A stretch of DNA of 64,000 nt. Source: Paracoccaceae bacterium. Lineage in GTDB: Bacteria; Pseudomonadota; Alphaproteobacteria; Rhodobacterales; Rhodobacteraceae. Positions within the stretch are counted from its first letter, which is position 1. The number at the start of each line of letters is the position of its first letter. The stretch spans positions 1-64,000 of the forward strand of contig PAPN01000053.1 of NCBI GenBank assembly GCA_002708925.1, in the 5' to 3' direction. The notes under the pieces were generated by a model, which had not been told where the DNA came from, made no database searches, and saw only the letters and a list, made by a program, of their open reading frames with translations. Of the stretch, positions 24,653-56,244 are shown one piece after another. A program made the position numbers and the translations under genes.

Positions 24653-25576
24653 ATGCAGCCGCTGACCGGGATCGCGCTGAAGCTTTGTTCAGTGCTGATG
24701 TTCATCTCCATGGCCTCTTTGATCAAGGCAACGTCGGATCATGTGCCGGCCGGGCAGGCGGTGTTCTTTCGCTCGCTTTTCGCGGTGCCGGTGATCCTGG
24801 CGTGGCTGACGATCCGCGGGGATTTGCGGACAGGCCTAAGGGTGAAATCCCCCATGGCGCATTTCTGGCGCGGGTTCGTGGGGACGGCGGCGATGGGTAT
24901 GATGTTTGCCGGGCTTGGCCTGTTGCCCCTGCCCGAGGTAACCGCGCTGGGCTATGCCGCGCCGCTGCTGACGGTGGTTTTCGCGGCGATGTTTCTGGGG
25001 GAAACGGTGGGCGTATTCCGCCTGGCCTCGGTTGCGCTGGGGCTGAGCGGAGTGTTGATCATCCTGGCCCCGCGCCTGACCCTGCTGTCCGAGGAAACCG
25101 TGCAGATGGCCCAGGCCGTTGGCGCTGTTCTGACGCTGATGGGGGCGGTCTGTGCGGCATTGGCGCAGATCTACATTCGCAAGCTTGTCCAGTCCGAGCA
25201 GACCTCGGCCATTGTGTTCTATTTTTCGCTGACTTCGACCCTGTTGTCGCTGCTGACGCTGCCTTTTGGCTGGGTGTTGCCCGCCCCGCGCGAGGCGCTG
25301 TTGCTGATCGTTGCCGGGCTGCTGGGCGGGATGGGGCAGATTTTCCTGACTTCGGCCTATCGGTTTGCGGGGGCCTCGGTGGTGGCACCGTTCGATTATG
25401 CCTCGATGGTGTTCGCGCTATTGATCGGCTATTTCATCTTTGCCGAAACACCCACCACGCAGATGCTGCTGGGCGCTGCGATTGTGATTGCTGCCGGGGT
25501 TCTGATCATCCTGCGCGAGGGGCATCTGGGGCTGAAACGGTCCAAGGCGCGCTCGGGGATCACGCCGCAGGGTTAG
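24653..25576 (+). CDS. EamA/DMT-family transporter
   Basis: A 307-residue membrane protein with about ten predicted helices in two EamA repeats (one over residues 10-140, one over 155-290). It contains FFRSLFAVPVILAWL and the late GAAIVIAAGVLIIL. DMT exporters of this kind move metabolites out of the cytoplasm; the substrate is unknown. It starts 135 bases from matB, on the other strand, and its 3' end overlaps the oxidase gene by four bases, tail to tail. Confidence 0.85.
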   Translation: MQPLTGIALKLCSVLMFISMASLIKATSDHVPAGQAVFFRSLFAVPVILAWLTIRGDLRTGLRVKSPMAHFWRGFVGTAAMGMMFAGLGLLPLPEVTALGYAAPLLTVVFAAMFLGETVGVFRLASVALGLSGVLIILAPRLTLLSEETVQMAQAVGAVLTLMGAVCAALAQIYIRKLVQSEQTSAIVFYFSLTSTLLSLLTLPFGWVLPAPREALLLIVAGLLGGMGQIFLTSAYRFAGASVVAPFDYASMVFALLIGYFIFAETPTTQMLLGAAIVIAAGVLIILREGHLGLKRSKARSGITPQG

Positions 25577-26895
25577 TGGCCCAGCAGGCGGGCCGCCGCA
25601 TAACCCGGTGCCATCAATGCCCGCCGATACCGCCCCAAAGGCATGGCTTTGGGGACATCGCGCATCAAGGCCGGATAGTGCGGCCCGGCCTCCTGCTCCA
25701 AGGTCAGCCGCGCCAGGATTGCGCCGGCCTGCGTGCCCATCGCCACCCCGTTCCCGTGATAGCCAAACCCGGTGAAAGCACCGGGCATTTCGGGGATCGC
25801 GCCCACGTAAGGGGACAGGTTCGGAGTAAAAGCCAGAACGCCATTCCAGCCATAGGGCGTTTCCACGTGGCGCCAGAAGGGAAAGGCCTGCTCGAACTGG
25901 CGGCGGGTGCGTGCGCGCATCGACTGAAACGCGCGCTGGCCAGTGAAATAGCCGCCGCGCATCCCAAAGAGGAACCGTTTGTTCGGCATCAGGCGGAAAT
26001 AATGCAGGAAAGTCGACTCGGTATAGGCCATCTGGGTGCTGTTCCAGCCGTCGGCGATTTCTGTATCGGTCAGCGGACGAGTGACCAGGACATTGGATTG
26101 CAGCGGCATGAAACGGCTGCGCATCCAGGGCGGCACATCCTCTGAGGAATAGCCGTTCGTGGCAAAGATCACCTTATCCGCGCGCAGACGTCCGGCGGCT
26201 GTACCGAGCGTATAGCTGCCATTCTGCCGGGTGACGGACAGCACGGGGCTGTGCCCATGAATGCGCGCGCCCGCGTTTCGCGCGGCGTGGGCCAATCCGT
26301 CGGCGTATTTGCGTGGGTTCAGACCGAATCCATGCGGTAGGGTCAGCGCACCATGATACGGCCCGCGCATCCCTAATCCGGGCAGGTCTGCGCGTTCATG
26401 CAGGGTGGTGGCAAAGCCATAATCAGTCTCTATTTCAGCCTGATTCTTGCGTAAATGCGCCATGGCCCGCCGGGAATGCGCCAAAATGGTTTCGCCCTCG
26501 GAATGGGTTTCGGCGTCAATGTCATGGGTGGTCAGCAGGTTGCGGACCAGCTGGATTGCGGCCAGCTCGGTTGCGCGCCAATGGTGCAGGCCTTCCGGCC
26601 CGTGCCGCCTGCGAATGGTCTGAGAGCCAAGCGCAGTGCCACCCAGACAGCAAAACCCTCCGTTCCGGGCCGAGGCCCCCCATCCGGGTGTCTGCGCGTC
26701 CAGAACGGTCACCGCGCAGCCCTGAGCAGCCAGATGCAGCGCGGCGGACAGGCCGGTAAACCCCGCGCCGACAATGGCAATCTTTGCGTGCTGATCGCCC
26801 TGAAGCTTGTCCAGCCCTTGCAGGCTGGTTGGCCCCCAATAGCAATCGGCAAGGGGGCCGGGCCCATAGGCGAACTGGTCCAGAACGCGTTCCAT
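25573..26895 (-). CDS. FAD-dependent amine oxidoreductase (PuuB-like)
   Basis: A 440-residue DAO-fold protein. FAD-binding GAGFTG occupies residues 43-48 in KIAIVGAGFTGLSAALHLA. The stretch WGASARNGGFCC and the C-terminal FGYHGNGVAMGTQAG block match the gamma-glutamylputrescine oxidase (PuuB) / glycine oxidase-like group. It is the last gene of the potFGHI-like operon, 2 bases after the second permease gene. This suggests oxidation of an imported polyamine or its gamma-glutamyl derivative. No gamma-glutamylputrescine synthetase (puuA) is in the window, so the exact substrate remains open. Confidence 0.78.
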   Translation of the reverse strand: MERVLDQFAYGPGPLADCYWGPTSLQGLDKLQGDQHAKIAIVGAGFTGLSAALHLAAQGCAVTVLDAQTPGWGASARNGGFCCLGGTALGSQTIRRRHGPEGLHHWRATELAAIQLVRNLLTTHDIDAETHSEGETILAHSRRAMAHLRKNQAEIETDYGFATTLHERADLPGLGMRGPYHGALTLPHGFGLNPRKYADGLAHAARNAGARIHGHSPVLSVTRQNGSYTLGTAAGRLRADKVIFATNGYSSEDVPPWMRSRFMPLQSNVLVTRPLTDTEIADGWNSTQMAYTESTFLHYFRLMPNKRFLFGMRGGYFTGQRAFQSMRARTRRQFEQAFPFWRHVETPYGWNGVLAFTPNLSPYVGAIPEMPGAFTGFGYHGNGVAMGTQAGAILARLTLEQEAGPHYPALMRDVPKAMPLGRYRRALMAPGYAAARLLGH

Positions 26896-26897
26896 GG

Positions 26898-27707
26898 TCA
26901 GCCTGCTGCGCGCTCTTCTTGCTGGCGTTGCACCGCCGCGCGTTTCGTTACCAGCGAGGCCGTGATGACCCCCACCGCAACGATCCCGATCATGATGGTC
27001 GAGAGAGCGTTAATCTCGGGCGAGACGCCCAGGCGCACGGCGGACCAGATCTTGATCGGCAGGGTGGTGGCCGACGGCCCCGAGGTAAAGGACGCGATCA
27101 CCAGATCGTCCAGCGACAGGGTAAAGGCCAGCAGCCACCCCGAAATCACCGCCGGCGCAATGATCGGCAGCGTCACCAGGCGGAAGGATTCGAACTGTGT
27201 GCAGCCCAGATCCAGCGCGGCCTCTTCCAGGGATTTATCGAAACTGACCAGCCGCGAGGACACCACCACCGACACATAGCACATCGAGAAAGTCGTATGC
27301 GCCAGAATAATGGTGACGATGCCGCGGTCCAGGCCAATCCCGATGAACAGCAGCAGCAAGGACAGGCCGGTGATTACCTCGGGCATCACCAGCGGGGCAT
27401 AGATCATGCCGGAAAACAGCGTGCGCCCATGGAACCGCCCCGCGCGGACCAGCACATAGGCGGCCATCGTTCCCAGGGCCGTCGCGATGGTCGAGCTGAC
27501 AACGGCTACTTGCAGCGTGACCCAGGCGGCTTCGAGGAAGGCATCGTTGTTCAGCAGCTCGCCATACCATTTGGTGCTGAATCCGGCCCAGACAGTGACC
27601 AGTTTCGACGCGTTGAAGCTGTAGATCACCAGAATGACCATCGGCAGATACAGAAATGCAAAGCCAAGCGTCAGCGAGGTGGCATTAAACCAAGTGAAAC
27701 GTCTCAT
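26898..27707 (-). CDS. Polyamine-type ABC transporter permease (PotC/PotI-like)
   Basis: A 269-residue BPD_transp_1 permease with about six helices. The cytoplasmic EAA loop is DKSLEEAALDLGCTQFESFRLVTLP. It pairs with the next permease upstream to form the channel of a spermidine/putrescine-family importer. Its first base overlaps the last base of the preceding permease gene, indicating coupled translation. The family call is firm; the substrate (putrescine is most likely) is inferred from the binding protein and from the amine-oxidising gene downstream. Confidence 0.88.
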   Translation of the reverse strand: MRRFTWFNATSLTLGFAFLYLPMVILVIYSFNASKLVTVWAGFSTKWYGELLNNDAFLEAAWVTLQVAVVSSTIATALGTMAAYVLVRAGRFHGRTLFSGMIYAPLVMPEVITGLSLLLLFIGIGLDRGIVTIILAHTTFSMCYVSVVVSSRLVSFDKSLEEAALDLGCTQFESFRLVTLPIIAPAVISGWLLAFTLSLDDLVIASFTSGPSATTLPIKIWSAVRLGVSPEINALSTIMIGIVAVGVITASLVTKRAAVQRQQEERAAG

Positions 27708-28594
27708 TAGCCCTTCTCCCGCTCTTTTTGTTCGTTCCGCTGGAACAGGATGATCGGAATGATCAGGATCAGCAGCAAGACGACCGCCACGGCGCTGGCG
27801 ACAGGCCAGTCACGGTTGGCCGAGAACTCTTCCCACAGAACCTTGCCCACCATCAGCGTGCCGGACCCACCCAAAAGCGAGGGGATGACAAACTCGCCAA
27901 TCGTGGGGATGAACACCAGGAAACAGCCCGCGATGATGCCGCTTTTGGACAGTTGGATCGTCACCAGCCAGAACGCCGACAGACGCGAACAGCCCAGATC
28001 CTCGGCGGCCTCCAGCAGCGACCCGTCCAGCTTTTCCAGCGCCGAATAGATCGGCAGGATCATGAAAGGCAGATAGGTGTAAACGATGCCGATGTAGACG
28101 GCGGTATTGGTGTTCAGGATGGTCAGCGGCTCGGATATCAGGCCGGTCCACATCAGGAACTGGTTCAGGAAACCCTCTTTTGACAGGATGCCCATCCACG
28201 AATAAACGCGGATCAGAAAGCTGGTCCAGAATGGCAGGATCACCAGCATCATCAGCGTGGGGCGCCATTCATCGGGGGCCATCGCCATGCCATAGGCAAT
28301 CGGATAGCCCACCAGCAGCGTCAGCAGCGTCGAGACCACGGCAATTTGCAGACTGGAGACATAGGCCTTCCAATACAGGTCATCCTCGGTCAGCCAGACG
28401 AAGTTTTCGAAATCCAGCTGGCTGAAGAAGTCCTTTATCGCGGCCCAGCCGCCGCCCAGATCCAGTGTGGGCGTATAGGGCGGAATGGCCAGCGCGACGT
28501 CACTCAGCGAGATTTTCAACACGATCACAAAGGGGATCAGGAACAGCGCCAACAGCCATATATACGGAACAGAGATCAGAAACAGGCGCCGCAT
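27707..28594 (-). CDS. Polyamine-type ABC transporter permease (PotB/PotH-like)
   Basis: A 295-residue permease: an N-terminal membrane segment (residues 4-25), a periplasmic stretch of about 50 residues, then five more helices. The EAA motif is DGSLLEAAEDLGCSRLSAFWLVTIQLS. PotB/H-type subunits carry this longer first periplasmic loop. It starts one base after the ATPase gene ends and is coupled to the second permease. It is the first channel subunit in the operon order ATPase, PotH, PotI. Confidence 0.88.
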   Translation of the reverse strand: MRRLFLISVPYIWLLALFLIPFVIVLKISLSDVALAIPPYTPTLDLGGGWAAIKDFFSQLDFENFVWLTEDDLYWKAYVSSLQIAVVSTLLTLLVGYPIAYGMAMAPDEWRPTLMMLVILPFWTSFLIRVYSWMGILSKEGFLNQFLMWTGLISEPLTILNTNTAVYIGIVYTYLPFMILPIYSALEKLDGSLLEAAEDLGCSRLSAFWLVTIQLSKSGIIAGCFLVFIPTIGEFVIPSLLGGSGTLMVGKVLWEEFSANRDWPVASAVAVVLLLILIIPIILFQRNEQKEREKG

Positions 28595-28595
28595 G

Positions 28596-29723
28596 TTATT
28601 GCTCCAGTACCGAGCCGGCGGTCAGCGTCCAGCTGAGCCAGACCTCGTCTTCCCAGGTAAAGCCCCGGCGCGACAGGCGGCGGGTGTTGGTGGCCTGCGC
28701 CTTGACCATCAGGCCGCCGGGAATTTCAACGTGATAGGTCGAGATATTGCCCAGATAGCCGATGTCGATGATCTTACCTTTGACGGCGTTCACGGCGCCT
28801 TCGGGCTTTTCGGCGGAAATGCTGATTTTCTCGGGCCGGATCGCGACAAAGGCGGTTTGCCCGTCCACAAGCGTGCGGCTGGTTTGCGCATGGATGGGGG
28901 GCTGATCGGCGTGCCATTTGATGTCATACCCATCCGTGCCGGTTGGTGTGGCCGTGCCCTGGATGATGTTCACATCTCCAATGAAATCAGCCACATAGAC
29001 CGAGTTCGGCTCTTCATAGATATTCGCGGGGGTGGCGACCTGCATGATGCGGCCTTCGTCCATCACGGCGACGCGGCTGGCCACGGTCATGGCCTCTTCT
29101 TGGTCGTGGGTGACGATCACAAAGGTGGTGCCGGTCTTTTCCTGAATGTCCATCAGCTCGAACTGGGTTTCTTCGCGCAGCTTGCGATCCAGCGCGCCCA
29201 GGGGTTCGTCCAGCAGCAGCAGCTTTGGCGCACGCGCCAGTGACCTGGCCAAAGCCACCCGCTGACGTTGCCCGCCCGAGATCTGGTGCGGTTTGCGCTT
29301 GGCAAATTTGGACAGGCGGGTCAGGCGCAGCATCTCTTCGACCCGTGCTTCAATCTGATCCTTGGGCATTTTCTGCCGCTTCAGACCAAAGGCGATATTT
29401 TCCCAGATCGAGAGGTGCGGGAACAGCGCGTAGGACTGGAACATCATGTTCACCGCGCGTTCGTTCGGCGGTACCTGGGCCATGTCCTGCCCCGCGATGA
29501 TGATCTGCCCGGTCGTGGGGGTTTCAAAGCCAGCCAGCATCCGCATCATGGTGGTTTTCCCGCAGCCCGACGGCCCCAGTAGCGCAAAAAATTCGCGCTC
29601 GTAGATGTCTTGGGTCAGGTTGTCGATGGCGGTGAAATCGCCAAACCGTTTGGTCACGCTTTTGAACTGAATCAGAGGCGTTTCGGTTTGGTCTTCCCAG
29701 GGGGCGAATACGGTTTCGGTCAT
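28596..29723 (-). CDS. Polyamine-type ABC transporter ATP-binding protein (PotA/PotG-like)
   Basis: A 375-residue ATPase. Walker A is GPSGCGKTT, signature SGGQRQRVALARSL, Walker B LLLLDEPLGALD, with the His switch in VTHDQEEAMT. A C-terminal TOBE_2 regulatory domain (from about residue 250) is typical of the PotA/PotG group. It energises the two permeases encoded next. It is separated from the binding-protein gene by a strong hairpin (29741-29770), which should lower expression of the ATPase and permeases relative to the binding protein. Confidence 0.9.
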   Translation of the reverse strand: MTETVFAPWEDQTETPLIQFKSVTKRFGDFTAIDNLTQDIYEREFFALLGPSGCGKTTMMRMLAGFETPTTGQIIIAGQDMAQVPPNERAVNMMFQSYALFPHLSIWENIAFGLKRQKMPKDQIEARVEEMLRLTRLSKFAKRKPHQISGGQRQRVALARSLARAPKLLLLDEPLGALDRKLREETQFELMDIQEKTGTTFVIVTHDQEEAMTVASRVAVMDEGRIMQVATPANIYEEPNSVYVADFIGDVNIIQGTATPTGTDGYDIKWHADQPPIHAQTSRTLVDGQTAFVAIRPEKISISAEKPEGAVNAVKGKIIDIGYLGNISTYHVEIPGGLMVKAQATNTRRLSRRGFTWEDEVWLSWTLTAGSVLEQ

Positions 29724-29740
29724 GTCAGTCTCTACACATA

Positions 29741-29770
29741 AAAAGGGCCCGCGCCATGACAGCGCGGGCC
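29741..29770 (-). terminator. attenuator-like terminator between binding-protein and ATPase genes
   Basis: On the minus strand GGCCCGCGC pairs perfectly with GCGCGGGCC (29746-29770), followed by CTTTTT (T run at 29741-29744). It stands inside the operon after the first gene. Partial termination here is a common way to make excess binding protein. Confidence 0.75.
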
Positions 29771-29784
29771 GGTACAGGCGTTTC

Positions 29785-30870
29785 TTAGGTGCCCGATTTG
29801 ATCTTGGTCCACAGGCGGGTCACGGTGCGCTGAACCTTCTGCGGGTAGGGGCCTTTGATATAGGTGTTCGCCATGGCCTCGGCGCTGGGATAGATCGCCG
29901 GATCGCCAATCACGTCTTCCTCAAGGAATTCCTGCGAGGCCTTGTTGCCGTTGGCGTAATAGACATAGTTCGACGCTGCGGCCATGTTGTTTGCGTCCAG
30001 AATGAAGTTCAGGAACTTATGCGCCGCTTCGGGGTTGGGGGCGTCGGCGGGAACGGCCATCTGGTCAAACCACATCAGGGCGCCTTCGGACGGGGCGTTA
30101 TAGGCGATCTCGACACCATTGTCGGCCTCGTCCGCGCGGTCACGCGCTTGCAGGATGTCACCCGACCAGCCGACGGCCACGCAGATATCGCCATTGGCCA
30201 GCGCGTTGATATATTCCGAGCTGTGGAACTTCTGCACATAGGGGCGCACGCCGACGAACAGCGCTTCGACCTTGCTGAACGCGTCCTTATCGTGGCTGTT
30301 GGGATCTTCACCCAGATAGGTCAGCGCGGCGGGGATCATCTCGTCCGGGGCGTCCAGGAAATGCACGCCGCAGGCGCTGAGCTTTTCCATGTTGACCGGG
30401 TCGAACACCAAAGACAACGAGTCGATCGGCGCATCGTCTCCCAGTATCTCTTTGACCTTGCCGACATTCACGCCGATCCCGGTGGTGCCCCACATGTAGT
30501 TGATCGAGTAAGCATTGTCGGGGTCGAACCGCGCGGTGCGATCCTGGATCGTGTCCCACAGATTGCCGATGTTGGACAGCTTGGCGGTGTCCAGTTTCTG
30601 GAACACGCCCGCCTGGATCTGGCGTTGCAGGAACGAGCCGGTCGGAACCACGACATCATAGCCCGAGCCCCCTGCCAGCAGCTTGGTTTCCAGCACTTCG
30701 TTACTGTCGAACACGTCGTAGATCAGCTTGATGCCGGTCTCTTCTTCGAATTTGGTCAGCAGGCCTTCGTCGATGTAGTCGGACCAGTTGTAGACGCGGA
30801 CTTCTTCGGCATTGGCCATGCCGGCGCACAGGGCGGCGATGGCTGTCACGGATAGCAGGCAGTTCTTCAT
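29785..30870 (-). CDS. Putrescine/spermidine-binding periplasmic protein (PotF/PotD-like)
   Basis: A 361-residue solute-binding protein. The signal peptide MKNCLLSVTAIAALCAGMANA is cut before EEVRV. The mature N-terminus EVRVYNWSDYIDEGLL is the hallmark of PotF/PotD, whose tryptophan and aspartates grip polyamine amines. The DNAYSINYMWGTTGIG block is also characteristic. The start at 30870 is preferred because GGGGAG lies 6-9 bases upstream and the signal peptide begins there. It is first in the operon with ATPase, two permeases and PuuB-like oxidase. TTTGATCAAA lies in its promoter. Confidence 0.92.
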   Translation of the reverse strand: MKNCLLSVTAIAALCAGMANAEEVRVYNWSDYIDEGLLTKFEEETGIKLIYDVFDSNEVLETKLLAGGSGYDVVVPTGSFLQRQIQAGVFQKLDTAKLSNIGNLWDTIQDRTARFDPDNAYSINYMWGTTGIGVNVGKVKEILGDDAPIDSLSLVFDPVNMEKLSACGVHFLDAPDEMIPAALTYLGEDPNSHDKDAFSKVEALFVGVRPYVQKFHSSEYINALANGDICVAVGWSGDILQARDRADEADNGVEIAYNAPSEGALMWFDQMAVPADAPNPEAAHKFLNFILDANNMAAASNYVYYANGNKASQEFLEEDVIGDPAIYPSAEAMANTYIKGPYPQKVQRTVTRLWTKIKSGT

Positions 30871-30916
30871 TTTCTTTCTCCCCTTGGATTCCCGGTGGTT
30901 TTTCTCCGGTCTATCC

Positions 30917-30949
30917 AAATTTGATCAAAAAATGCCCGTCAAGGCAATA
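30917..30949 (-). promoter_or_regulatory. promoter with putative GntR operator, binding-protein operon
   Basis: On the minus strand TTGACG is followed 7 bases later by the perfect palindrome TTTGATCAAA (30920-30929), placing the palindrome in the -35/-10 spacer. The same core occurs in the aminotransferase promoter at nearly the same distance from its -35. The divergent GntR-type regulator is the obvious candidate binder. Confidence 0.55.
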
Positions 30950-31020
30950 TGGTAATGTTTCCACGGGTCATTTAAACTCGCAACAAATGGATGAAAGCCA
31001 ATGCGGAGAAAAAAGGCAGC

Positions 31021-31716
31021 ATGGATGGGGACGCCCAAAAAACCGCCACTAAAGAAACCGGCAAAGCGCGGCTTCCTGCGCATGAGGTGATCTATCGTAA
31101 ATTGCGTGAACAGATTCTCTTCGGAGAGATTGCGCCGGGGCAACCCGTTACCATTCAGGGGCTGACCGGAAGCCTGGAGGCCGGGATGACGCCGGTGCGC
31201 GAGGCGATCCGGCGGCTGACGGCCGAGGGTGCGCTGAAATTCCAGGGCAATCGCCGGGTCATCGTGCCGCCTCTGACGGCCGAGAATATATCGGAAATTA
31301 TATATGCAAGGCAATGGCTTGAGTCCCATATGGGCCTGCGCGCAACCGAGCGTGCAACGCCCGAGGATCTGTCGGTTCTGACCGAGCTGGACGCGGCCCT
31401 GGATGCCGCAATCGCACGCGGTGATCTGCGCGGTTATCTGGAGTATAACTATCGGTTCCACGCCAAGATTTACGAACTGGCCGATGCCCCGATTCTGGCC
31501 ACCATGGCCGAGGGACTCTGGCTGCGCTTCGGCCCCTCTCTGAGGGTGGTGTGCGGGCGGCTGGGGACCCAGAATTTGCCGGATCGTCACAAGGATCTGC
31601 TGGGGGCCATGCGGACCGGAGACGCAGAGGCCGCAGCGCGTGCCTGTCGCGAAGACATGCTGCAAGGAATGGAGCAAGTGCGGGACATGTTGCAGCCGCA
31701 GACCGAATTAAACTGA
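31021..31716 (+). CDS. GntR-family (FadR/FCD subfamily) transcriptional regulator
   Basis: A 231-residue regulator. The N-terminal winged helix begins AHEVIYRKLREQILFGEI and has the recognition-helix block MTPVREAIRRLTAEGAL. An all-helical FCD ligand domain follows, with the metal/ligand residues of that fold (D/N-x3-H at YNYRFHAKIY, and later H in RHKDLLGAM). The ATG at 31021 has AAAGG in front of it; an ATG 10 codons upstream has no ribosome-binding site. It lies between two polyamine operons' promoters that share TTTGATCA, so it probably represses both until an amine-derived ligand binds. Confidence 0.88.
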   Translation: MDGDAQKTATKETGKARLPAHEVIYRKLREQILFGEIAPGQPVTIQGLTGSLEAGMTPVREAIRRLTAEGALKFQGNRRVIVPPLTAENISEIIYARQWLESHMGLRATERATPEDLSVLTELDAALDAAIARGDLRGYLEYNYRFHAKIYELADAPILATMAEGLWLRFGPSLRVVCGRLGTQNLPDRHKDLLGAMRTGDAEAAARACREDMLQGMEQVRDMLQPQTELN

Positions 31717-31721
31717 TTCGA

Positions 31722-31749
31722 TTGACACGCAAAAATTTGATCATATTGT
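31722..31749 (+). promoter_or_regulatory. promoter with putative GntR operator, aminotransferase operon
   Basis: TTGACA at 31722-31727 and TATTGT at 31744-31749 are 16 bases apart. The spacer contains AAATTTGATCA, with TTTGATCA at 31736-31743, the same core as at 30920-30929. Binding there would block RNA polymerase. Confidence 0.6.
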
Positions 31750-31811
31750 GAATGAACGCGGCCAGTTCACAGTCTGGCCGTGATTCGCCATTTCGAACGA
31801 CGAGGCCTGGG

Positions 31812-33209
31812 ATGACCATCATCAGCAATCATATGCCCACCGAAGAATTGCAAAAACTGGATGCGGCGCATCATATGCACCCGTTCACGACCCAGGATGA
31901 GCTGGCCGCAAAAGGCGCGCGTATCATCACGCGGGCCGATGGGGTCTGGGTGCACGACAGTGAGGGCAACCAGATCATCGACGGGATGGCCGGGCTGTGG
32001 TGTGTAAACATCGGCTATGGCCGCCAGCGCCTGGCCGATGTCGCCGCGCGCCAGATGGCTGAACTGCCCTATTACAACACGTTCTTCATGACGACACACG
32101 TGCCCGCGATCGCGCTGAGCCAGAAACTGGCCGAAATCGCGCCGGGCGATCTGAACCATGTGTTCTATGCGGGCTCGGGGTCCGAGGCAAATGACACGAA
32201 TTTGCGTATGGTGCGGACCTATTGGGCGCAGAAGGGCAAGCCCTCGAAGCGGATCGTCATCAGCCGGAAAAATGCCTATCACGGCTCGACGGTTGCGGCC
32301 GGTTCCCTGGGCGGGATGAGCGGAATGCACGCGCAGGGCGGGCTGCCGATCCCCGACATCCACCACATTGATCAGCCTAACTGGTGGGCCGAAGGCGCAG
32401 ACATGTCCCCTGCGGAATTTGGCCTGGAACGTGCTCGCCAGCTGGAGCAAGCCATCCATGAGCTGGGCGAAGACAATGTTGCCGCCTTTATCGCCGAACC
32501 CGTGCAGGGGGCTGGCGGTGTGATCGTGCCGCCCGAAACCTACTGGCCCGAAATCAAGCGCATTTGCGACCAGTACGATATTCTGCTGATCGCGGACGAG
32601 GTGATCTGTGGCTTCGGTCGGACCGGCAATTGGTTTGGCAGCGAAACCGTGGGCTGGACTCCGGACATCATGACCATCGCCAAGGGCCTGTCCTCGGGCT
32701 ATCAGCCGATTGGTGGCTCGATCGTCAGCGATGAAATTGCCGCTGTCATTGGCGCGTGCGAATTCAATCACGGCTATACCTACAACGCCCATCCGGTGGC
32801 GGCCGCCGTGGCGCTGGAAAACCTGAATATCATGCAGGAAGAGAAAATCGTGGATTACGTCCGCGATGACATCGCCCCCTATCTGAAAGAAAAATGGGAA
32901 GCCCTGGCCGATCACCCTATGGTGGGCGAGGCCAAGATTGTCGGGATGATGGGCTCGATCGCGCTGACCCCGCATAAGGAAAGCCGCGCGGCCTTTGCCG
33001 CCGAGGCCGGGACTGTGGGATATATCTGCCGCGAACGGTGCTTTGCCAACAACCTGATCATGCGTCACGTCGGGGATCGGATGATCATCAGCCCGCCCCT
33101 GGTGATTTCGCGCGAGGAAGTGGACACGCTGATCGACCGCGCGGTGAAGTCGCTTGACGAAGGGTTGGCTCGCGTTAAAGATGAGGGATTGTGGGAGGCA
33201 GCACCCTAA
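31812..33209 (+). CDS. Class III PLP aminotransferase (polyamine/omega-amino-acid:pyruvate type)
   Basis: A 465-residue fold type I aminotransferase. It has VFYAGSGSEANDTNLRMVR for the phosphate cup, ISRKNAYHGSTVAAGSL, the aspartate of LLIADEVICGFGRTG for the pyridine nitrogen and the Schiff-base lysine in TIAKGLSSGYQPIGG. This pattern matches the aspartate aminotransferase-family / SpuC group, which transfers amino groups from putrescine, GABA or related amines to pyruvate. GAGG lies 7 bases before the ATG at 31812; an ATG at 31752 is less supported. Context with a polyamine importer and GntR regulator favours an amine substrate, not proven. Confidence 0.85.
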   Translation: MTIISNHMPTEELQKLDAAHHMHPFTTQDELAAKGARIITRADGVWVHDSEGNQIIDGMAGLWCVNIGYGRQRLADVAARQMAELPYYNTFFMTTHVPAIALSQKLAEIAPGDLNHVFYAGSGSEANDTNLRMVRTYWAQKGKPSKRIVISRKNAYHGSTVAAGSLGGMSGMHAQGGLPIPDIHHIDQPNWWAEGADMSPAEFGLERARQLEQAIHELGEDNVAAFIAEPVQGAGGVIVPPETYWPEIKRICDQYDILLIADEVICGFGRTGNWFGSETVGWTPDIMTIAKGLSSGYQPIGGSIVSDEIAAVIGACEFNHGYTYNAHPVAAAVALENLNIMQEEKIVDYVRDDIAPYLKEKWEALADHPMVGEAKIVGMMGSIALTPHKESRAAFAAEAGTVGYICRERCFANNLIMRHVGDRMIISPPLVISREEVDTLIDRAVKSLDEGLARVKDEGLWEAAP

Positions 33210-33247
33210 GCACGCAATTCCTGCTTCCCAAGACAAAGGAGCAGGCA

Positions 33248-34318
33248 ATGAAATCGTTTCTGGGGCTGTGGGCAATTGTAGCTGTTGTATGTGTTGCCTA
33301 TCTGGTTTTCTGGCCTGTCCCGGTCGATCCCAAACCTTGGAACGCTCCGAAAAACCCTGGATATTCCGGGGCGTTCGAACCCAATGAACGGCTGAAACAG
33401 CTGACATTTCTGGACATTGCAGGGCGTTCCGGCCCCGAAGATATCGCGATTGGCCCTGACGGAATGCTTTATATCGCGGTTCATGACGGGGAAATCCTGC
33501 GCTGCGCTCAGAACGGTGGTCAGACCGAGGTTTTTGCAACCACAAAGGGCCGCCCGCTGGGGATCGAGTTCGGACCGGATGGGGTGCTGTATGTTGCCGA
33601 TGCCTATCTGGGTTTGCTGGCGATCGACCCGCAGGGCCAAGTCAGCTTGCTGGCGGACAGCGCGGATGGGGTGCCGATCCGTTATGCCAATGATGTGGAT
33701 ATTGCGGCGGATGGTACGATCTTCTTCACCGATGCCTCGACCCGTTTTGGTGCTAAGGCGCATGGGGGTACGCTGCCTGCCTCGATTCTGGACCTGATCG
33801 AACATTCCAGTAATGGGCGGGTTCTGAAATACGACCCGCAGACGGGTAAAGCCACCTTGTTCACCAATGGGCTGACCTTTCCGAACGGGATTTCCATTGG
33901 CGCAAACGGGGATGTCTACGTGGCTGAAACCGGGACTTACTCGGTTTGGCGATACGCGCCGGATGGGACGGGGCGTCAGGTGCTGCGGAATCTGCCCGGA
34001 TTTCCGGATAATCTAAATGCCGCCCCGGACGGAAGCTTCTGGCTGGGGCTGGTCAGTCCCCGAAATCCGATTGTCGATCGGCTGTCTGCGCGGCCACGGT
34101 TAAGGCAGGCGATCCTCAGGCTGCCGGAAACGATGAGGCCCGCGCCGAAACGCTATGGGTTCGTGTTGCGCATGGATGCCGAAGGGCGGGTTCTTGAAAC
34201 ATTGCAAGACCCCGCCGGAAGCTACGCACTGACAACCGGCGCCATCACCGCCGCTGACGGTAGCATCTTTGTGTCCTCGCTGACCGAGCGCCGTCTGGGG
34301 GTGTTGCCGGCGAACTGA
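33248..34318 (+). CDS. Membrane-anchored SMP-30/strictosidine-synthase-like beta-propeller protein
   Basis: A 356-residue protein. There is one N-terminal hydrophobic anchor (LGLWAIVAVVCVAYLVFWPV, residues 4-23), then a six-bladed beta-propeller with repeated G-P/A-D-G-x-L/I-Y/F motifs (GPDGMLYIAVHDG, GPDGVLYVADAYLG, AADGTIFFTDAST). The TDAST-type blade matches strictosidine synthase-like / adipocyte plasma-membrane-associated proteins; related folds are lactonases. The catalytic domain would face the periplasm. The ATG at 33248 has AAGGAG 6 bases upstream. It is probably cotranscribed with the aminotransferase 38 bases before it. Function and substrate are unknown. Confidence 0.78.
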   Translation: MKSFLGLWAIVAVVCVAYLVFWPVPVDPKPWNAPKNPGYSGAFEPNERLKQLTFLDIAGRSGPEDIAIGPDGMLYIAVHDGEILRCAQNGGQTEVFATTKGRPLGIEFGPDGVLYVADAYLGLLAIDPQGQVSLLADSADGVPIRYANDVDIAADGTIFFTDASTRFGAKAHGGTLPASILDLIEHSSNGRVLKYDPQTGKATLFTNGLTFPNGISIGANGDVYVAETGTYSVWRYAPDGTGRQVLRNLPGFPDNLNAAPDGSFWLGLVSPRNPIVDRLSARPRLRQAILRLPETMRPAPKRYGFVLRMDAEGRVLETLQDPAGSYALTTGAITAADGSIFVSSLTERRLGVLPAN

Positions 34319-34691: not shown

Positions 34692-35795
34692 TTGGCTGAA
34701 CAACAAACCAAGGATGCATTCGTCCAGTTCGACCGAGTGCAAAAGAGCTATGACGGTGAGACGCTTGTCGTCAAAGATCTGAACCTCAGTATGCCGAAGG
34801 GCGAATTCCTTACGATGCTGGGGCCGTCTGGGTCGGGGAAAACCACGTGCCTGATGATGCTTGCCGGGTTTGAGACCGCCACACACGGCGAAATCTTGTT
34901 GGACGGTCGTCCGATCAACAACATTCCGCCGCATAAGCGTGGCATCGGCATGGTGTTCCAGAATTACGCGCTGTTCCCCCACATGACCGTGGCTGAAAAC
35001 CTGTCCTTCCCGCTGGAAGTGCGCGGCATGGATAAATCCGTGCGCGAGACCAAGATCAAACGGGCCTTGGACATGGTGCAGATGGGCGATTTCGGCAATC
35101 GTCGTCCGGCGCAGCTGTCCGGGGGGCAGCAGCAGCGGATCGCCCTGGCCCGCGCGCTGGTGTTTGAGCCCGAGCTGGTTCTGATGGACGAACCGCTGGG
35201 CGCGCTGGATAAACAGCTGCGCGAGCACATGCAGTTTGAAATCACCCGTCTGGCGCATGAGCTGGGGATCACCACCGTTTACGTGACCCACGACCAGACC
35301 GAGGCTCTTACCATGTCTGACCGCGTGGCCGTTTTCGATGATGGCCGCATTCAGCAGCTGGCCCCGCCGGATCAGCTGTATGAAGCCCCGCAAAACAGCT
35401 TTGTTGCCCAATTTATCGGTGAAAACAACACGTTGCTGGGTGAGGTGGTCGAAATAAAAGGCCCCGATCTATGCGTTGTCCGCCTGGAAGATGGCGAGCT
35501 GATTGACGCCAAGCCGGTCAATGTTTCGAAACCGGGCGAGAAGACCCGCGTCTCGATCCGCCCCGAACGTGTCGAATTCAACAAGGACCGCCTGCAAGAG
35601 GGCGCTCATACGCTAAAGGCCGAGGTGCTGGAGTTCATCTATATGGGTGACATTTTCCGCACCCGTCTGCGCGTGGCCGGAAACGAAGAATTCGTTGTGA
35701 AAACCCGGAACGCACCTGACCAGGATCGTCTGGTTCCGGGGCAACAGCTGGAAATCGGCTGGCTGCCTCAGGACTGCCACGCCCTGGACGCCTGA
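34692..35795 (+). CDS. Polyamine-type ABC transporter ATP-binding protein (PotA-like), second system
   Basis: A 367-residue ATPase: Walker A GPSGSGKTT, signature SGGQQQRIALARAL, Walker B LVLMDEPLGALD, His switch VTHDQTEALTMSD and a C-terminal TOBE_2 domain. The start is TTG at 34692 (protein MAEQQTKDAF), supported by GGGGAG 7 bases upstream. It is first of four genes in the order ATPase, binding protein, two permeases, unlike the first system where the binding protein leads. Family members import spermidine or putrescine; the substrate here is unproven. Confidence 0.88.
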   Translation: MAEQQTKDAFVQFDRVQKSYDGETLVVKDLNLSMPKGEFLTMLGPSGSGKTTCLMMLAGFETATHGEILLDGRPINNIPPHKRGIGMVFQNYALFPHMTVAENLSFPLEVRGMDKSVRETKIKRALDMVQMGDFGNRRPAQLSGGQQQRIALARALVFEPELVLMDEPLGALDKQLREHMQFEITRLAHELGITTVYVTHDQTEALTMSDRVAVFDDGRIQQLAPPDQLYEAPQNSFVAQFIGENNTLLGEVVEIKGPDLCVVRLEDGELIDAKPVNVSKPGEKTRVSIRPERVEFNKDRLQEGAHTLKAEVLEFIYMGDIFRTRLRVAGNEEFVVKTRNAPDQDRLVPGQQLEIGWLPQDCHALDA

Positions 35796-35804
35796 TAGAA
35801 TCCG

Positions 35805-35829
35805 CAGGCCCGGTCAGAGGCTGGGCCTG
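35805..35829 (+). repeat. intercistronic hairpin, ATPase / binding-protein genes
   Basis: CAGGCCC pairs with GGGCCTG across an 11-base loop just after the ATPase stop. There is no T run, so it is more likely an mRNA-processing or stability element than a terminator. Confidence 0.45.
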
Positions 35830-35910
35830 TGTCGTTCAAGGAGAGGTGACTTTGCCCGTTTCACTCTCTCTGTCATCATCAAATTACGGGCACCAATGGG
35901 AGTTATGACA

Positions 35911-36984
35911 ATGAAACTCAAGACTGCTCTTCTGGCTTCGGCGCTGACCACCGCAGCGTTTGCCGCTCAGGCTGGCGAAGTGACGGTAATGTCCTGGGGT
36001 GGCGCCTACACCAAGTCGCAGGTCGAGGCCTATCACAAGCCCTTCACCGCCAAGACCGGCGTGAAGATCAACTCGATCGACGCGGACAACCCCGCGACCC
36101 CGATCAAGGCGCAGGTTGAGGCCGGGAATGTCTCGATCGACGTGGCTGACGTGGAATTCTCGGATGCTGTGCGTCTGTGTGACGAAGGCCTGCTGGAAGA
36201 AATCGACGCCTCGATGCTGCCCGCAGCCCCCGATGGCACCCCGGCTGCTGACGATTTCATCGACGGCGCGATTCAGGATTGCGCGGTTGCGAACATCGTT
36301 TGGTCAACCGTTTTTGCCTATAACAAAGACAACGTCTCGATGGCGCCCGCCACCATCGCCGACTTCTTTGACACCGCAAAAATCCCCGGCAAACGCGGCC
36401 TGCGGAAATCGGCCAAAGCGACCCTGGAAATGGCTCTGATGGCGGATGGCGTTCCTGCGGGCGAAGTCTATGACCTGCTGGACACCGATGCCGGTGTGGA
36501 TCGCGCCTTTGCCAAGCTGGACAGCATCAAGGCAGACATCGTCTGGTGGGAAGCCGGCGCTCAGCCGCCGCAGCTGCTGGCAGATGGCGAGGTCGTGATG
36601 TCGACCGCCTATAACGGCCGTATCTTCAACGCTGCGGTTGCCGAAAACCAGCCGCTGGAAGTCGTCTGGGACGGTCAGATCATGGACTTTGACCTGTTCG
36701 TCGTGCCCAAAGGCGCCCCCAACAAGGACGCCGCGATGGAGTTCATCGCCTTCGCAACCGATACCCAGCGCCTGGCCGATCAGGCTTCGTGGATTTCCTA
36801 CGGTCCTGCGCGTAAATCGTCGGGTGCTCTGGTGGGTAAATACTCGGATGGCGTGACCGAAATGGGCCCGCATATGCCGACCGCTGCGGCCAACCTGACC
36901 AACGCTCTGGTTAACAACTTTGAGTTCTGGGTCGATAAAGACGCCGAGCTGAACGAGCGTTTCAACGCCTGGCTGGCCAACTGA
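35911..36984 (+). CDS. Periplasmic solute-binding protein (PotD-like), second system
   Basis: A 357-residue binding protein with the signal peptide MKLKTALLASALTTAAFAAQA cut before GEVTV. The mature N-terminus is GEVTVMSWGGAYTKSQVEAY rather than the YNWSDY of PotF, so the binding pocket differs from the first system. The start at 35911 is favoured because GGGAG lies 8 bases upstream; ATGs at 35896 and 35905 are also in frame. It is followed by a hairpin and two permease genes. The ligand could be a polyamine or another cationic compound. Confidence 0.87.
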   Translation: MKLKTALLASALTTAAFAAQAGEVTVMSWGGAYTKSQVEAYHKPFTAKTGVKINSIDADNPATPIKAQVEAGNVSIDVADVEFSDAVRLCDEGLLEEIDASMLPAAPDGTPAADDFIDGAIQDCAVANIVWSTVFAYNKDNVSMAPATIADFFDTAKIPGKRGLRKSAKATLEMALMADGVPAGEVYDLLDTDAGVDRAFAKLDSIKADIVWWEAGAQPPQLLADGEVVMSTAYNGRIFNAAVAENQPLEVVWDGQIMDFDLFVVPKGAPNKDAAMEFIAFATDTQRLADQASWISYGPARKSSGALVGKYSDGVTEMGPHMPTAAANLTNALVNNFEFWVDKDAELNERFNAWLAN

Positions 36985-56220: not shown

Positions 56221-56244
56221 TCTTGCATTTGATCAAAGTTTCGG

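What the first reader, a model, noticed from the sequence alone, without database searches (positions are those of the whole stretch)
25573..34318. One GntR-controlled polyamine regulon with a shared operator
TTTGATCA(AA) occurs at 30920-30929 and 31736-31743, in both cases 7-8 bases after a TTGAC -35, i.e. in the promoter spacer of two operons that flank the gntR gene. One operon is a polyamine-type importer plus PuuB-like oxidase; the other is a class III aminotransferase plus a propeller protein. Together they suggest uptake and two amine-removal routes regulated by one repressor.
Basis: partly seen in the sequence, partly recalled or inferred. Interest (0 to 1): 0.6.

Follow-up and report, generated by a model that had tools for sequence, protein, structure and literature searches.

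The report
GntR-controlled polyamine regulon of roseobacters
A single regulator gene sits between two polyamine operons in this marine bacterium, and its probable DNA binding site is preserved at both promoters in many related bacteria and in front of other polyamine genes elsewhere, which points to one switch for polyamine use.

Summary
TTTGATCAAA (30920-30929) lies between potF and gntR, and TTTGATCA (31736-31743) lies between gntR and a class III aminotransferase. Comparative evidence turns the guess into a well-supported regulon. Around 80 gntR relatives from named genomes, TGATCA occurs upstream in 80 and downstream in 78; no other palindromic hexamer is on both sides in more than 6. At the aminotransferase promoter the geometry is rigid: TTGAC starts 16 nt before TGATCA in 75 of 78, and a -10-like hexamer follows directly. 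The palindrome, AATTTGATCAAATT, also marks unlinked genes in the own genome: a glutamine synthetase/amidotransferase/oxidase operon, agmatinase, an aldehyde dehydrogenase and, more weakly, an ornithine/lysine-type decarboxylase. TTTGATCA precedes these genes in 34 of 47 rows from genomes with the gntR ortholog (own genome included) and 0 of 12 without. Best reading: an FCD-type GntR repressor controls polyamine uptake, transamination and gamma-glutamylation in Roseobacteraceae. Binding, inducer and polarity are untested. New member of a known kind.

The parts
25573..26895 (-). FAD-dependent amine/amino-acid oxidase (DAO family), last gene of the importer operon
   Evidence: PF01266 E 3e-55; homolog in 62 of 80 related loci, one of them at only 32% identity
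26898..27707 (-). potI-type permease
   Evidence: PRK10592 PotI E 8e-99, below cut-off; 65 of 80 loci
27707..28594 (-). potH-type permease
   Evidence: PRK10683 PotH E 1e-116, below cut-off; 69 of 80 loci (this count may include permease hits of the second importer)
28596..29723 (-). potG-type ATPase of polyamine importer
   Evidence: TIGR01187 above cut-off; PotG model E 2e-137, below cut-off
29785..30873 (-). potF-type periplasmic putrescine/polyamine-binding protein
   Evidence: PRK10682 PotF E 2e-133, below cut-off; best PDB matches polyamine transport protein 3ttm and putrescine-binding protein 1a99, E about 1e-115; 73 of 80 loci
30918..30931 (.). operator 1, AATTTGATCAAAAA, between divergent potF and gntR
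   Evidence: TGATCA within 250 bp upstream of gntR in 80 of 80 loci
30991..31716 (+). gntR, FCD-type GntR regulator (start possibly the in-frame ATG at 31021, judged from the ortholog alignment)
   Evidence: PF00392 and PF07729; alignment A1; AlphaFold2 mean pLDDT 86.6
31722..31727 (+). -35 TTGACA of the aminotransferase promoter
   Evidence: TTGAC conserved at fixed spacing
31734..31747 (.). operator 2, AATTTGATCATATT, fills the promoter spacer and overlaps the -10
   Evidence: TGATCA within 250 bp downstream of gntR in 78 of 80 loci
31744..31749 (+). -10 TATTGT of the aminotransferase promoter
   Evidence: TATTCT, TATTGT or TATTTT follows TGATCA directly in 70 of 78 loci
31812..33209 (+). 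class III polyamine-type aminotransferase (spuC-like); start judged from orthologs, the searches used 31797-33209
   Evidence: PRK07480 above cut-off; PDB neighbours 8wqj, 3hmu, 6gwi putrescine aminotransferase, 9j4z polyamine:pyruvate transaminase; 80 of 80 loci
33248..34318 (+). strictosidine-synthase-like propeller protein, co-directional; weak member
   Evidence: PF20067, PF03088; homolog in only 1 of 80 related loci

Best explanation
The gntR gene at 30991-31716 encodes an FCD-type GntR dimer that binds the palindrome AATTTGATCAAATT. Without polyamine it represses the divergent potFGHI-oxidase operon and the downstream aminotransferase, and probably itself. On the aminotransferase promoter it sits in the -35/-10 spacer and over the -10, so it would block RNA polymerase. 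A polyamine or an early catabolite (putrescine, cadaverine, spermidine or a gamma-glutamyl derivative) would release it. The same repressor also controls unlinked genes: a glutamine synthetase/amidotransferase/glutamine synthetase/oxidase operon (probable gamma-glutamylation route), agmatinase, an aldehyde dehydrogenase and perhaps a decarboxylase. Shown: gene content, operator positions, their conservation and their co-occurrence with the regulator gene. Inferred: binding, dimer contacts, repression, inducer and substrates in this species.
For: Local footprint: TGATCA within 250 bp upstream and downstream of gntR in 80 and 78 of 80 named loci, both in 78; the next palindromic hexamer is on both sides in 6. 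In the first set, both sites in 21 of 22 ortholog loci; GntR paralogs L035-L042 have both in 0 of 8. Promoter geometry: TTGAC 16 nt before TGATCA in 75 of 78, with a -10-like hexamer directly after. Remote targets: TTTGATCA within 300 bp upstream in 34 of 47 rows with the gntR ortholog (30 of 43 without the own genome) and 0 of 12 without it, Fisher 5e-6. The seven aminotransferase and potF relatives found in genomes without the ortholog (four of them at 70-71% identity) have no TTTGATCA in that stretch. Genome-wide: exact ATTTGATCAAAT in 19 of 22 family genomes with the ortholog (57 sites) and 2 of 14 without (4 sites). In the nine same-genus genomes 22 of 31 exact sites precede the puuA-like, speB or aldehyde dehydrogenase targets; of 8 others examined, 6 precede further amine genes, including a potA-type importer and an acetylpolyamine amidohydrolase. 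Substrate: mutant growth screens in Ruegeria pomeroyi verified cadaverine, putrescine and spermidine for potFGHI, SPO3469 mutant (PMC10130141, passages).
Against: No binding or expression data. G016 (82% complete) has 3 exact sites and G022 has 1 without a found ortholog; outside the family 7 of 24 genomes have exact sites (10 sites). Some genomes with gntR lack remote sites: G015 in all four target families. Six of 11 TTTGATCAAA places in the own genome are not at polyamine genes. The potF promoter elements are not resolved.
Confidence: 0.85

Rival explanations
1. The GntR protein is an activator, or has both roles, rather than a plain repressor.
For: Nothing in the sequence fixes polarity. 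At potF the operator does not sit in a clearly conserved -35/-10 pair, and upstream of the aldehyde dehydrogenase it is about 137-155 bp from the match start in same-genus genomes.
Against: At the aminotransferase promoter the site fills the spacer and abuts the -10 at fixed spacing in 75 of 78 loci, a position expected of a repressor (established knowledge of GntR regulators, recalled).
Confidence: 0.12
2. The site belongs to another regulator, for example a global nitrogen or carbon regulator, and its place beside gntR is coincidence.
For: No binding was tested. Exact sites occur in two family genomes with no ortholog found, G016 and G022, and in 7 of 24 genomes outside the family.
Against: Sites flank this gntR in 78 of 80 loci, are absent at the aminotransferase and potF relatives (0 of 7) and at the remote target relatives (0 of 12) of genomes without it, and do not flank GntR paralogs on both sides (0 of 8).
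Confidence: 0.05
3. A local two-operon switch only; the remote matches are chance.
For: The 10-mer occurs at six non-polyamine places in the own genome.
Against: Remote sites are conserved as full palindromes in front of orthologs, for example the aldehyde dehydrogenase in 9 of 9 same-genus genomes. TTTGATCA precedes the puuA-like gene in 13 of 15 gntR-bearing genomes, and the best control 8-mer, itself part of the operator flank, reaches 9 of 47 against 34.
Confidence: 0.06
4. The regulon serves other amines (for example L-pipecolate, agmatine or beta-alanine) rather than putrescine-type polyamines.
For: The oxidase's best NCBIfam model is L-pipecolate oxidase, below cut-off; class III aminotransferases are promiscuous (recalled).
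Against: PotF-type binding protein, agmatinase above cut-off, acetylpolyamine amidohydrolase under the same site in G006, and the Ruegeria potF mutant result.
Confidence: 0.1

Closest known systems
potFGHI (SPO3466-3469) and aminotransferase SPO3471 of Ruegeria pomeroyi DSS-3
   Same: Same kind of gene set. Mutant growth screens verified cadaverine, putrescine and spermidine as substrates of potFGHI (PMC10130141, passages). SPO3471 was one of seven aminotransferases tested on cadaverine in PMC11075332; its own result was not seen (passages). Several Ruegeria loci have the potFGHI-gntR-aminotransferase order and both operators.
   Different: No regulator or operator was reported in the passages read. 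That SPO3470 is the gntR gene is inferred from the numbering; the R. pomeroyi genome itself was not among the loci looked at.
E. coli Puu regulon (PuuR, puuADRCBE; recalled)
   Same: Gamma-glutamylation of putrescine under one dedicated regulator.
   Different: PuuR is not a GntR protein (recalled); here the probable gamma-glutamylation genes are unlinked to the regulator, and transamination and uptake share its operator.
E. coli McbR/YncC (PDB 4p9f) and other FCD GntR proteins
   Same: Closest solved fold: TM-score 0.81 over the query, 29% identity.
   Different: McbR is not known to me as a polyamine regulator (recalled); its operator was not compared.

Membership tests
GntR family, FadR/FCD subfamily | N-terminal GntR winged helix | tested here: met
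   PF00392 E 5e-12, 45.7 bits over 27 cut-off; helix/strand pattern in the model
GntR family, FadR/FCD subfamily | C-terminal all-helical FCD domain | tested here: met
   PF07729 E 5e-22, 79 bits over 24.3; Foldseek best hits are GntR regulators such as McbR, VanR and TM0439
GntR family, FadR/FCD subfamily | FCD metal ligand set (Asp/Asn, His, His, His; recalled) | tested here: inconclusive
   N153, H157, H200 and D222 are invariant in 19 sequences; D222 lines up with His in three of the five PDB alignments printed, so the fourth ligand seems to differ
GntR family, FadR/FCD subfamily | Binding to a short palindromic operator | not testable with these tools
   Conserved palindrome found by footprinting; binding not measured
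PotFGHI putrescine importer | PotF-type binding protein plus PotG ATPase and two permeases | tested here: met
   the PotF, PotG, PotH and PotI models are each the best-scoring NCBIfam hit of their gene but all stay below their equivalog cut-offs; the broader potA subfamily model is passed
Puu gamma-glutamylation pathway | Gamma-glutamylputrescine synthetase, oxidase, aldehyde dehydrogenase, hydrolase | tested here: inconclusive
   Two glutamine-synthetase paralogs, a class I amidotransferase, a DAO oxidase and an aldehyde dehydrogenase carry the operator or lie in an operon with it, but none passes a Puu-specific cut-off

The most novel reading that the evidence does not exclude
One FCD-type GntR is the general polyamine regulator of Roseobacteraceae. 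It coordinates uptake of several polyamines, deacetylation of acetylpolyamines, both the transamination and the gamma-glutamylation routes, aldehyde oxidation, agmatine conversion and even a polyamine-forming decarboxylase. It senses a polyamine-derived cation or gamma-glutamyl compound through an FCD pocket whose fourth metal ligand is an invariant Asp instead of His.
Probability: 0.35. Interest if true: 0.65.

Novelty: new member of a known kind. Interest (0 to 1): 0.5.

Why it matters
Polyamines are thought to be an important component of marine dissolved organic matter (abstract of PMC8437039), and roseobacters are prominent consumers of such compounds (recalled). The importer and aminotransferase are known, but no regulator or operator of this kind turned up in my paper searches (lists capped at 20 where more papers matched). 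A defined operator would help to list polyamine genes in roseobacter genomes, suggest functions for glutamine-synthetase-like and oxidase genes, and offer an expression reporter.

Tried and rejected
Considered and rejected: that the motif is a random palindrome (controls); that it also marks GntR paralogs (0 of 8 have both sites; TGATCA alone is upstream in 4 of 8); that the second polyamine-type importer at 34692-36984 belongs to the regulon (no TGATCA between 33082 and 37218); that the propeller gene is a core member (1 of 80); that the potF-side TTGAC is a real -35 (1 of 80). The group IV decarboxylase on C14 was first called ornithine decarboxylase; its best NCBIfam model is diaminopimelate decarboxylase, below cut-off, and its best PDB match is a lysine/ornithine decarboxylase, so it is kept as tentative. 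G029 has only GntR fragments and was left out of the with/without counts. Remote rows below 60% identity were dropped before the count: 12 of 29 listed rows, 18 of 33, 4 of 12 and 9 of 28. Among the dropped are two glutamine synthetase rows that do carry the site (L084 in G021, L088 in G006) and two agmatinase rows of gntR-bearing same-genus genomes that do not (G003, G007). A first remote count that shifted the start by the missing N-terminus gave 31 of 47; one search counts from the match start. The second-cluster site of G004 was not fetched. Most of the 29 loci brought in were not examined. Gene names were judged by eye from translations unless a family search is cited. RegPrecise could not be searched, so a prediction there cannot be excluded.
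Full report
What is there. The window (contig C53 of G000, 3.42 Mb, 83% complete) comes from an alphaproteobacterium. The stretch holds a divergent pair: potF-potG-potH-potI-oxidase on the minus strand (30873-25573) and gntR on the plus strand (30991-31716), followed by a class III aminotransferase (to 33209) and a strictosidine-synthase-like propeller gene (to 34318). PotF is close to polyamine-binding structures (3ttm, 1a99, E about 1e-115). The aminotransferase is closest to 8wqj (transaminase from Shimia marina), 9uvs and 3hmu, with 6gwi (putrescine aminotransferase) and 9j4z (polyamine:pyruvate transaminase) further down.

The motif. TTTGATCAAA lies at 30920-30929 and TTTGATCA at 31736-31743. 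The second lies in the 16-bp spacer between TTGACA (31722-31727) and TATTGT (31744-31749). Within the window the 8-mer is above chance (8 against 2.0).

Conservation beside gntR. A search of 61 genomes (37 of the family) gave 22 genomes with an ortholog of 51% identity or more, the window's own included. Of these 22 loci, 21 carry TGATCA on both sides of gntR within 300 bp; L032, out of synteny, does not. Eight loci with more distant GntR paralogs have it on both sides in 0 of 8. A scan of named genomes kept the best 80 of 579 relatives; the choice was by similarity of the protein, not by sites. In the 80, TGATCA is upstream in 80, downstream in 78 and on both sides in 78; the next best palindromic hexamer, AAATTT, is on both sides in 6. 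Synteny is high: aminotransferase in 80, potF in 73 and oxidase in 62 of 80, but the propeller in 1; some loci end at contig edges, so these are minima. In the 78 downstream cases TTGAC starts 16 nt before TGATCA in 75 (17-18 nt in the other 3), and the following hexamer is TATTCT (48), TATTGT (13), TATTTT (9), TATCCT (5), TATTAT (2) or TATGAT (1).

Remote targets in the own genome. A scan for AATTTGATCAAATT with up to 2 mismatches gave 13 places. The five with 0-1 mismatch are: an aldehyde dehydrogenase promoter (C21, exact), a glutamine-synthetase-like operon (C39), the aminotransferase (C53), agmatinase (C54), and one place on C44 with no polyamine gene seen. The C39 operon reads glutamine synthetase paralog 1, class I amidotransferase, glutamine synthetase paralog 2, DAO oxidase, and has two TTTGATCAAA sites 75 bp apart in front. 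Agmatinase passes its model cut-offs. A decarboxylase of the ornithine/lysine/diaminopimelate group on C14 has a two-mismatch site about 205 bp upstream of the match start. Apart from potF/gntR and this decarboxylase, the two-mismatch places showed no polyamine gene by eye (C53:56226). A TTTGATCATA also precedes a class I/II aminotransferase on C32, whose counterpart in G006 carries the exact 12-mer; the two were matched by eye.

Conservation of remote targets. With rows of at least 60% identity, TTTGATCA within 300 bp upstream is present in genomes with the gntR ortholog in 13 of 15 rows (glutamine synthetase paralog 1), 8 of 13 (agmatinase), 10 of 15 (aldehyde dehydrogenase; in 9 of these, all same-genus, as the exact 14-mer) and 3 of 4 (decarboxylase), and in genomes without it in 0 of 2, 0 of 2, 0 of 4 and 0 of 4. 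The total is 34 of 47 against 0 of 12; without the own genome's four rows it is 30 of 43 (Fisher 5e-6 for the full table; the best control 8-mer, TCAAATTT, which overlaps the operator flank, reaches 9 of 47). Relatedness makes this a guide, not a probability. In 14 family genomes without the ortholog, seven aminotransferase and potF relatives were found, four of them at 70-71% identity; none has TTTGATCA in 300 bp upstream. The exact 12-mer ATTTGATCAAAT occurs in 19 of 22 family genomes with the ortholog (57 sites), in 2 of 14 without (4 sites), in G029 with GntR fragments only (2 sites), and in 7 of 24 genomes outside the family (10 sites). One exception, G016, is 82% complete and holds a 71% identical potF, so a missed gntR is possible.

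New members in relatives. In the nine same-genus genomes 31 exact 12-mers were found. Twenty-two precede the glutamine synthetase, agmatinase or aldehyde dehydrogenase targets (positions compared across; one of them is a 38% identical glutamine synthetase paralog in G006). Eight of the other nine were examined. Six precede amine genes: a DAO oxidase in a second potF-gntR-glutamine synthetase-like cluster (G002), and in G006 a potA-type importer, an acetylpolyamine amidohydrolase (PDB 3q9b, E 3e-134), two class III aminotransferases and a class I/II aminotransferase. Two do not clearly do so (an FMN oxidoreductase in G001; a LysR-like coding region in G008, by eye). The ninth, in G004, was not fetched. 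In G018 two further exact sites precede a succinate-semialdehyde dehydrogenase (above a subfamily cut-off) and another glutamine synthetase paralog; the one G017 site examined does not precede an amine gene.

The regulator. It has GntR and FCD domains. The AlphaFold2 model from 19 orthologs has mean pLDDT 86.6, and the best fold match is McbR/YncC, 4p9f, with TM-score 0.81. N153, H157, H200 and D222 are invariant. The last lines up with His in three of five printed PDB alignments, so the usual metal set (recalled) seems altered; what this means for the ligand is open.

Mechanism. Shown by sequence: operator, placement, conservation, co-occurrence. Inferred: GntR binds the palindrome, blocks RNA polymerase at the aminotransferase promoter, controls the divergent pair including itself, and is released by a polyamine or catabolite. 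Literature: mutant growth screens in Ruegeria pomeroyi verified cadaverine, putrescine and spermidine for potFGHI (PMC10130141, passages), and SPO3466-3469 are listed as the putrescine importer in PMC9038784 (passages). Papers checked by term search for a matching GntR regulator: PMC4494728 has no hit for polyamine or putrescine, the PMC5343134 passages list no polyamine GntR regulon, and the passages of PMC4344238, PMC4809877 and PMC8437039 describe none. The listings of the paper searches showed no description of this operator or regulator; searches matched more papers than the 20 listed. Subscription papers and RegPrecise were not available.

Verdict. Interest is moderate: useful and testable, not a new type of system.

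Noticed in passing
34692-36984: A second polyamine-type ABC importer (potA-like ATPase and a binding protein) follows the cluster; no TGATCA lies between 33082 and 37218, so it seems outside the regulon although a close homolog of its ATPase (76% identity or more) is near the cluster in 34 of 80 relatives.
   Followed up: partly
56228-56237: A TTTGATCAAA between an HU-type DNA-binding protein gene and a DMT-type transporter gene (by eye); no polyamine gene nearby, probably chance or a weak site.
   Followed up: partly
L058:10032-10745: The binding protein of a histidine-type amino-acid ABC transporter next to the glutamine synthetase operon is split into two ORFs, so it may be broken or a sequencing error.
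   Followed up: no
L205, L208, L219, L221, L233, L249: Several Ruegeria species carry a second TGATCA site about 100 bp from the first and close to the gntR match start, suggesting direct autoregulation; other Ruegeria loci (L215, L232) do not.
   Followed up: partly
L191, L192, L218, L220, L230, L231, L025, L033: Two TGATCA sites 29 or 38 bp apart precede the gene after gntR, possibly cooperative operators.
   Followed up: no
L288: G002 carries a second cluster with oxidase, potF-type protein, a 45% identical GntR and a glutamine-synthetase-like gene, with TTTGATCA sites at several promoters: a duplicated version of the switch.
   Followed up: partly
L259 (G050:C1:235776-235787): Outside the family, one exact ATTTGATCAAAT lies about 170 bp upstream of a 34% identical GntR gene, so the operator may be older than this family.
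   Followed up: no
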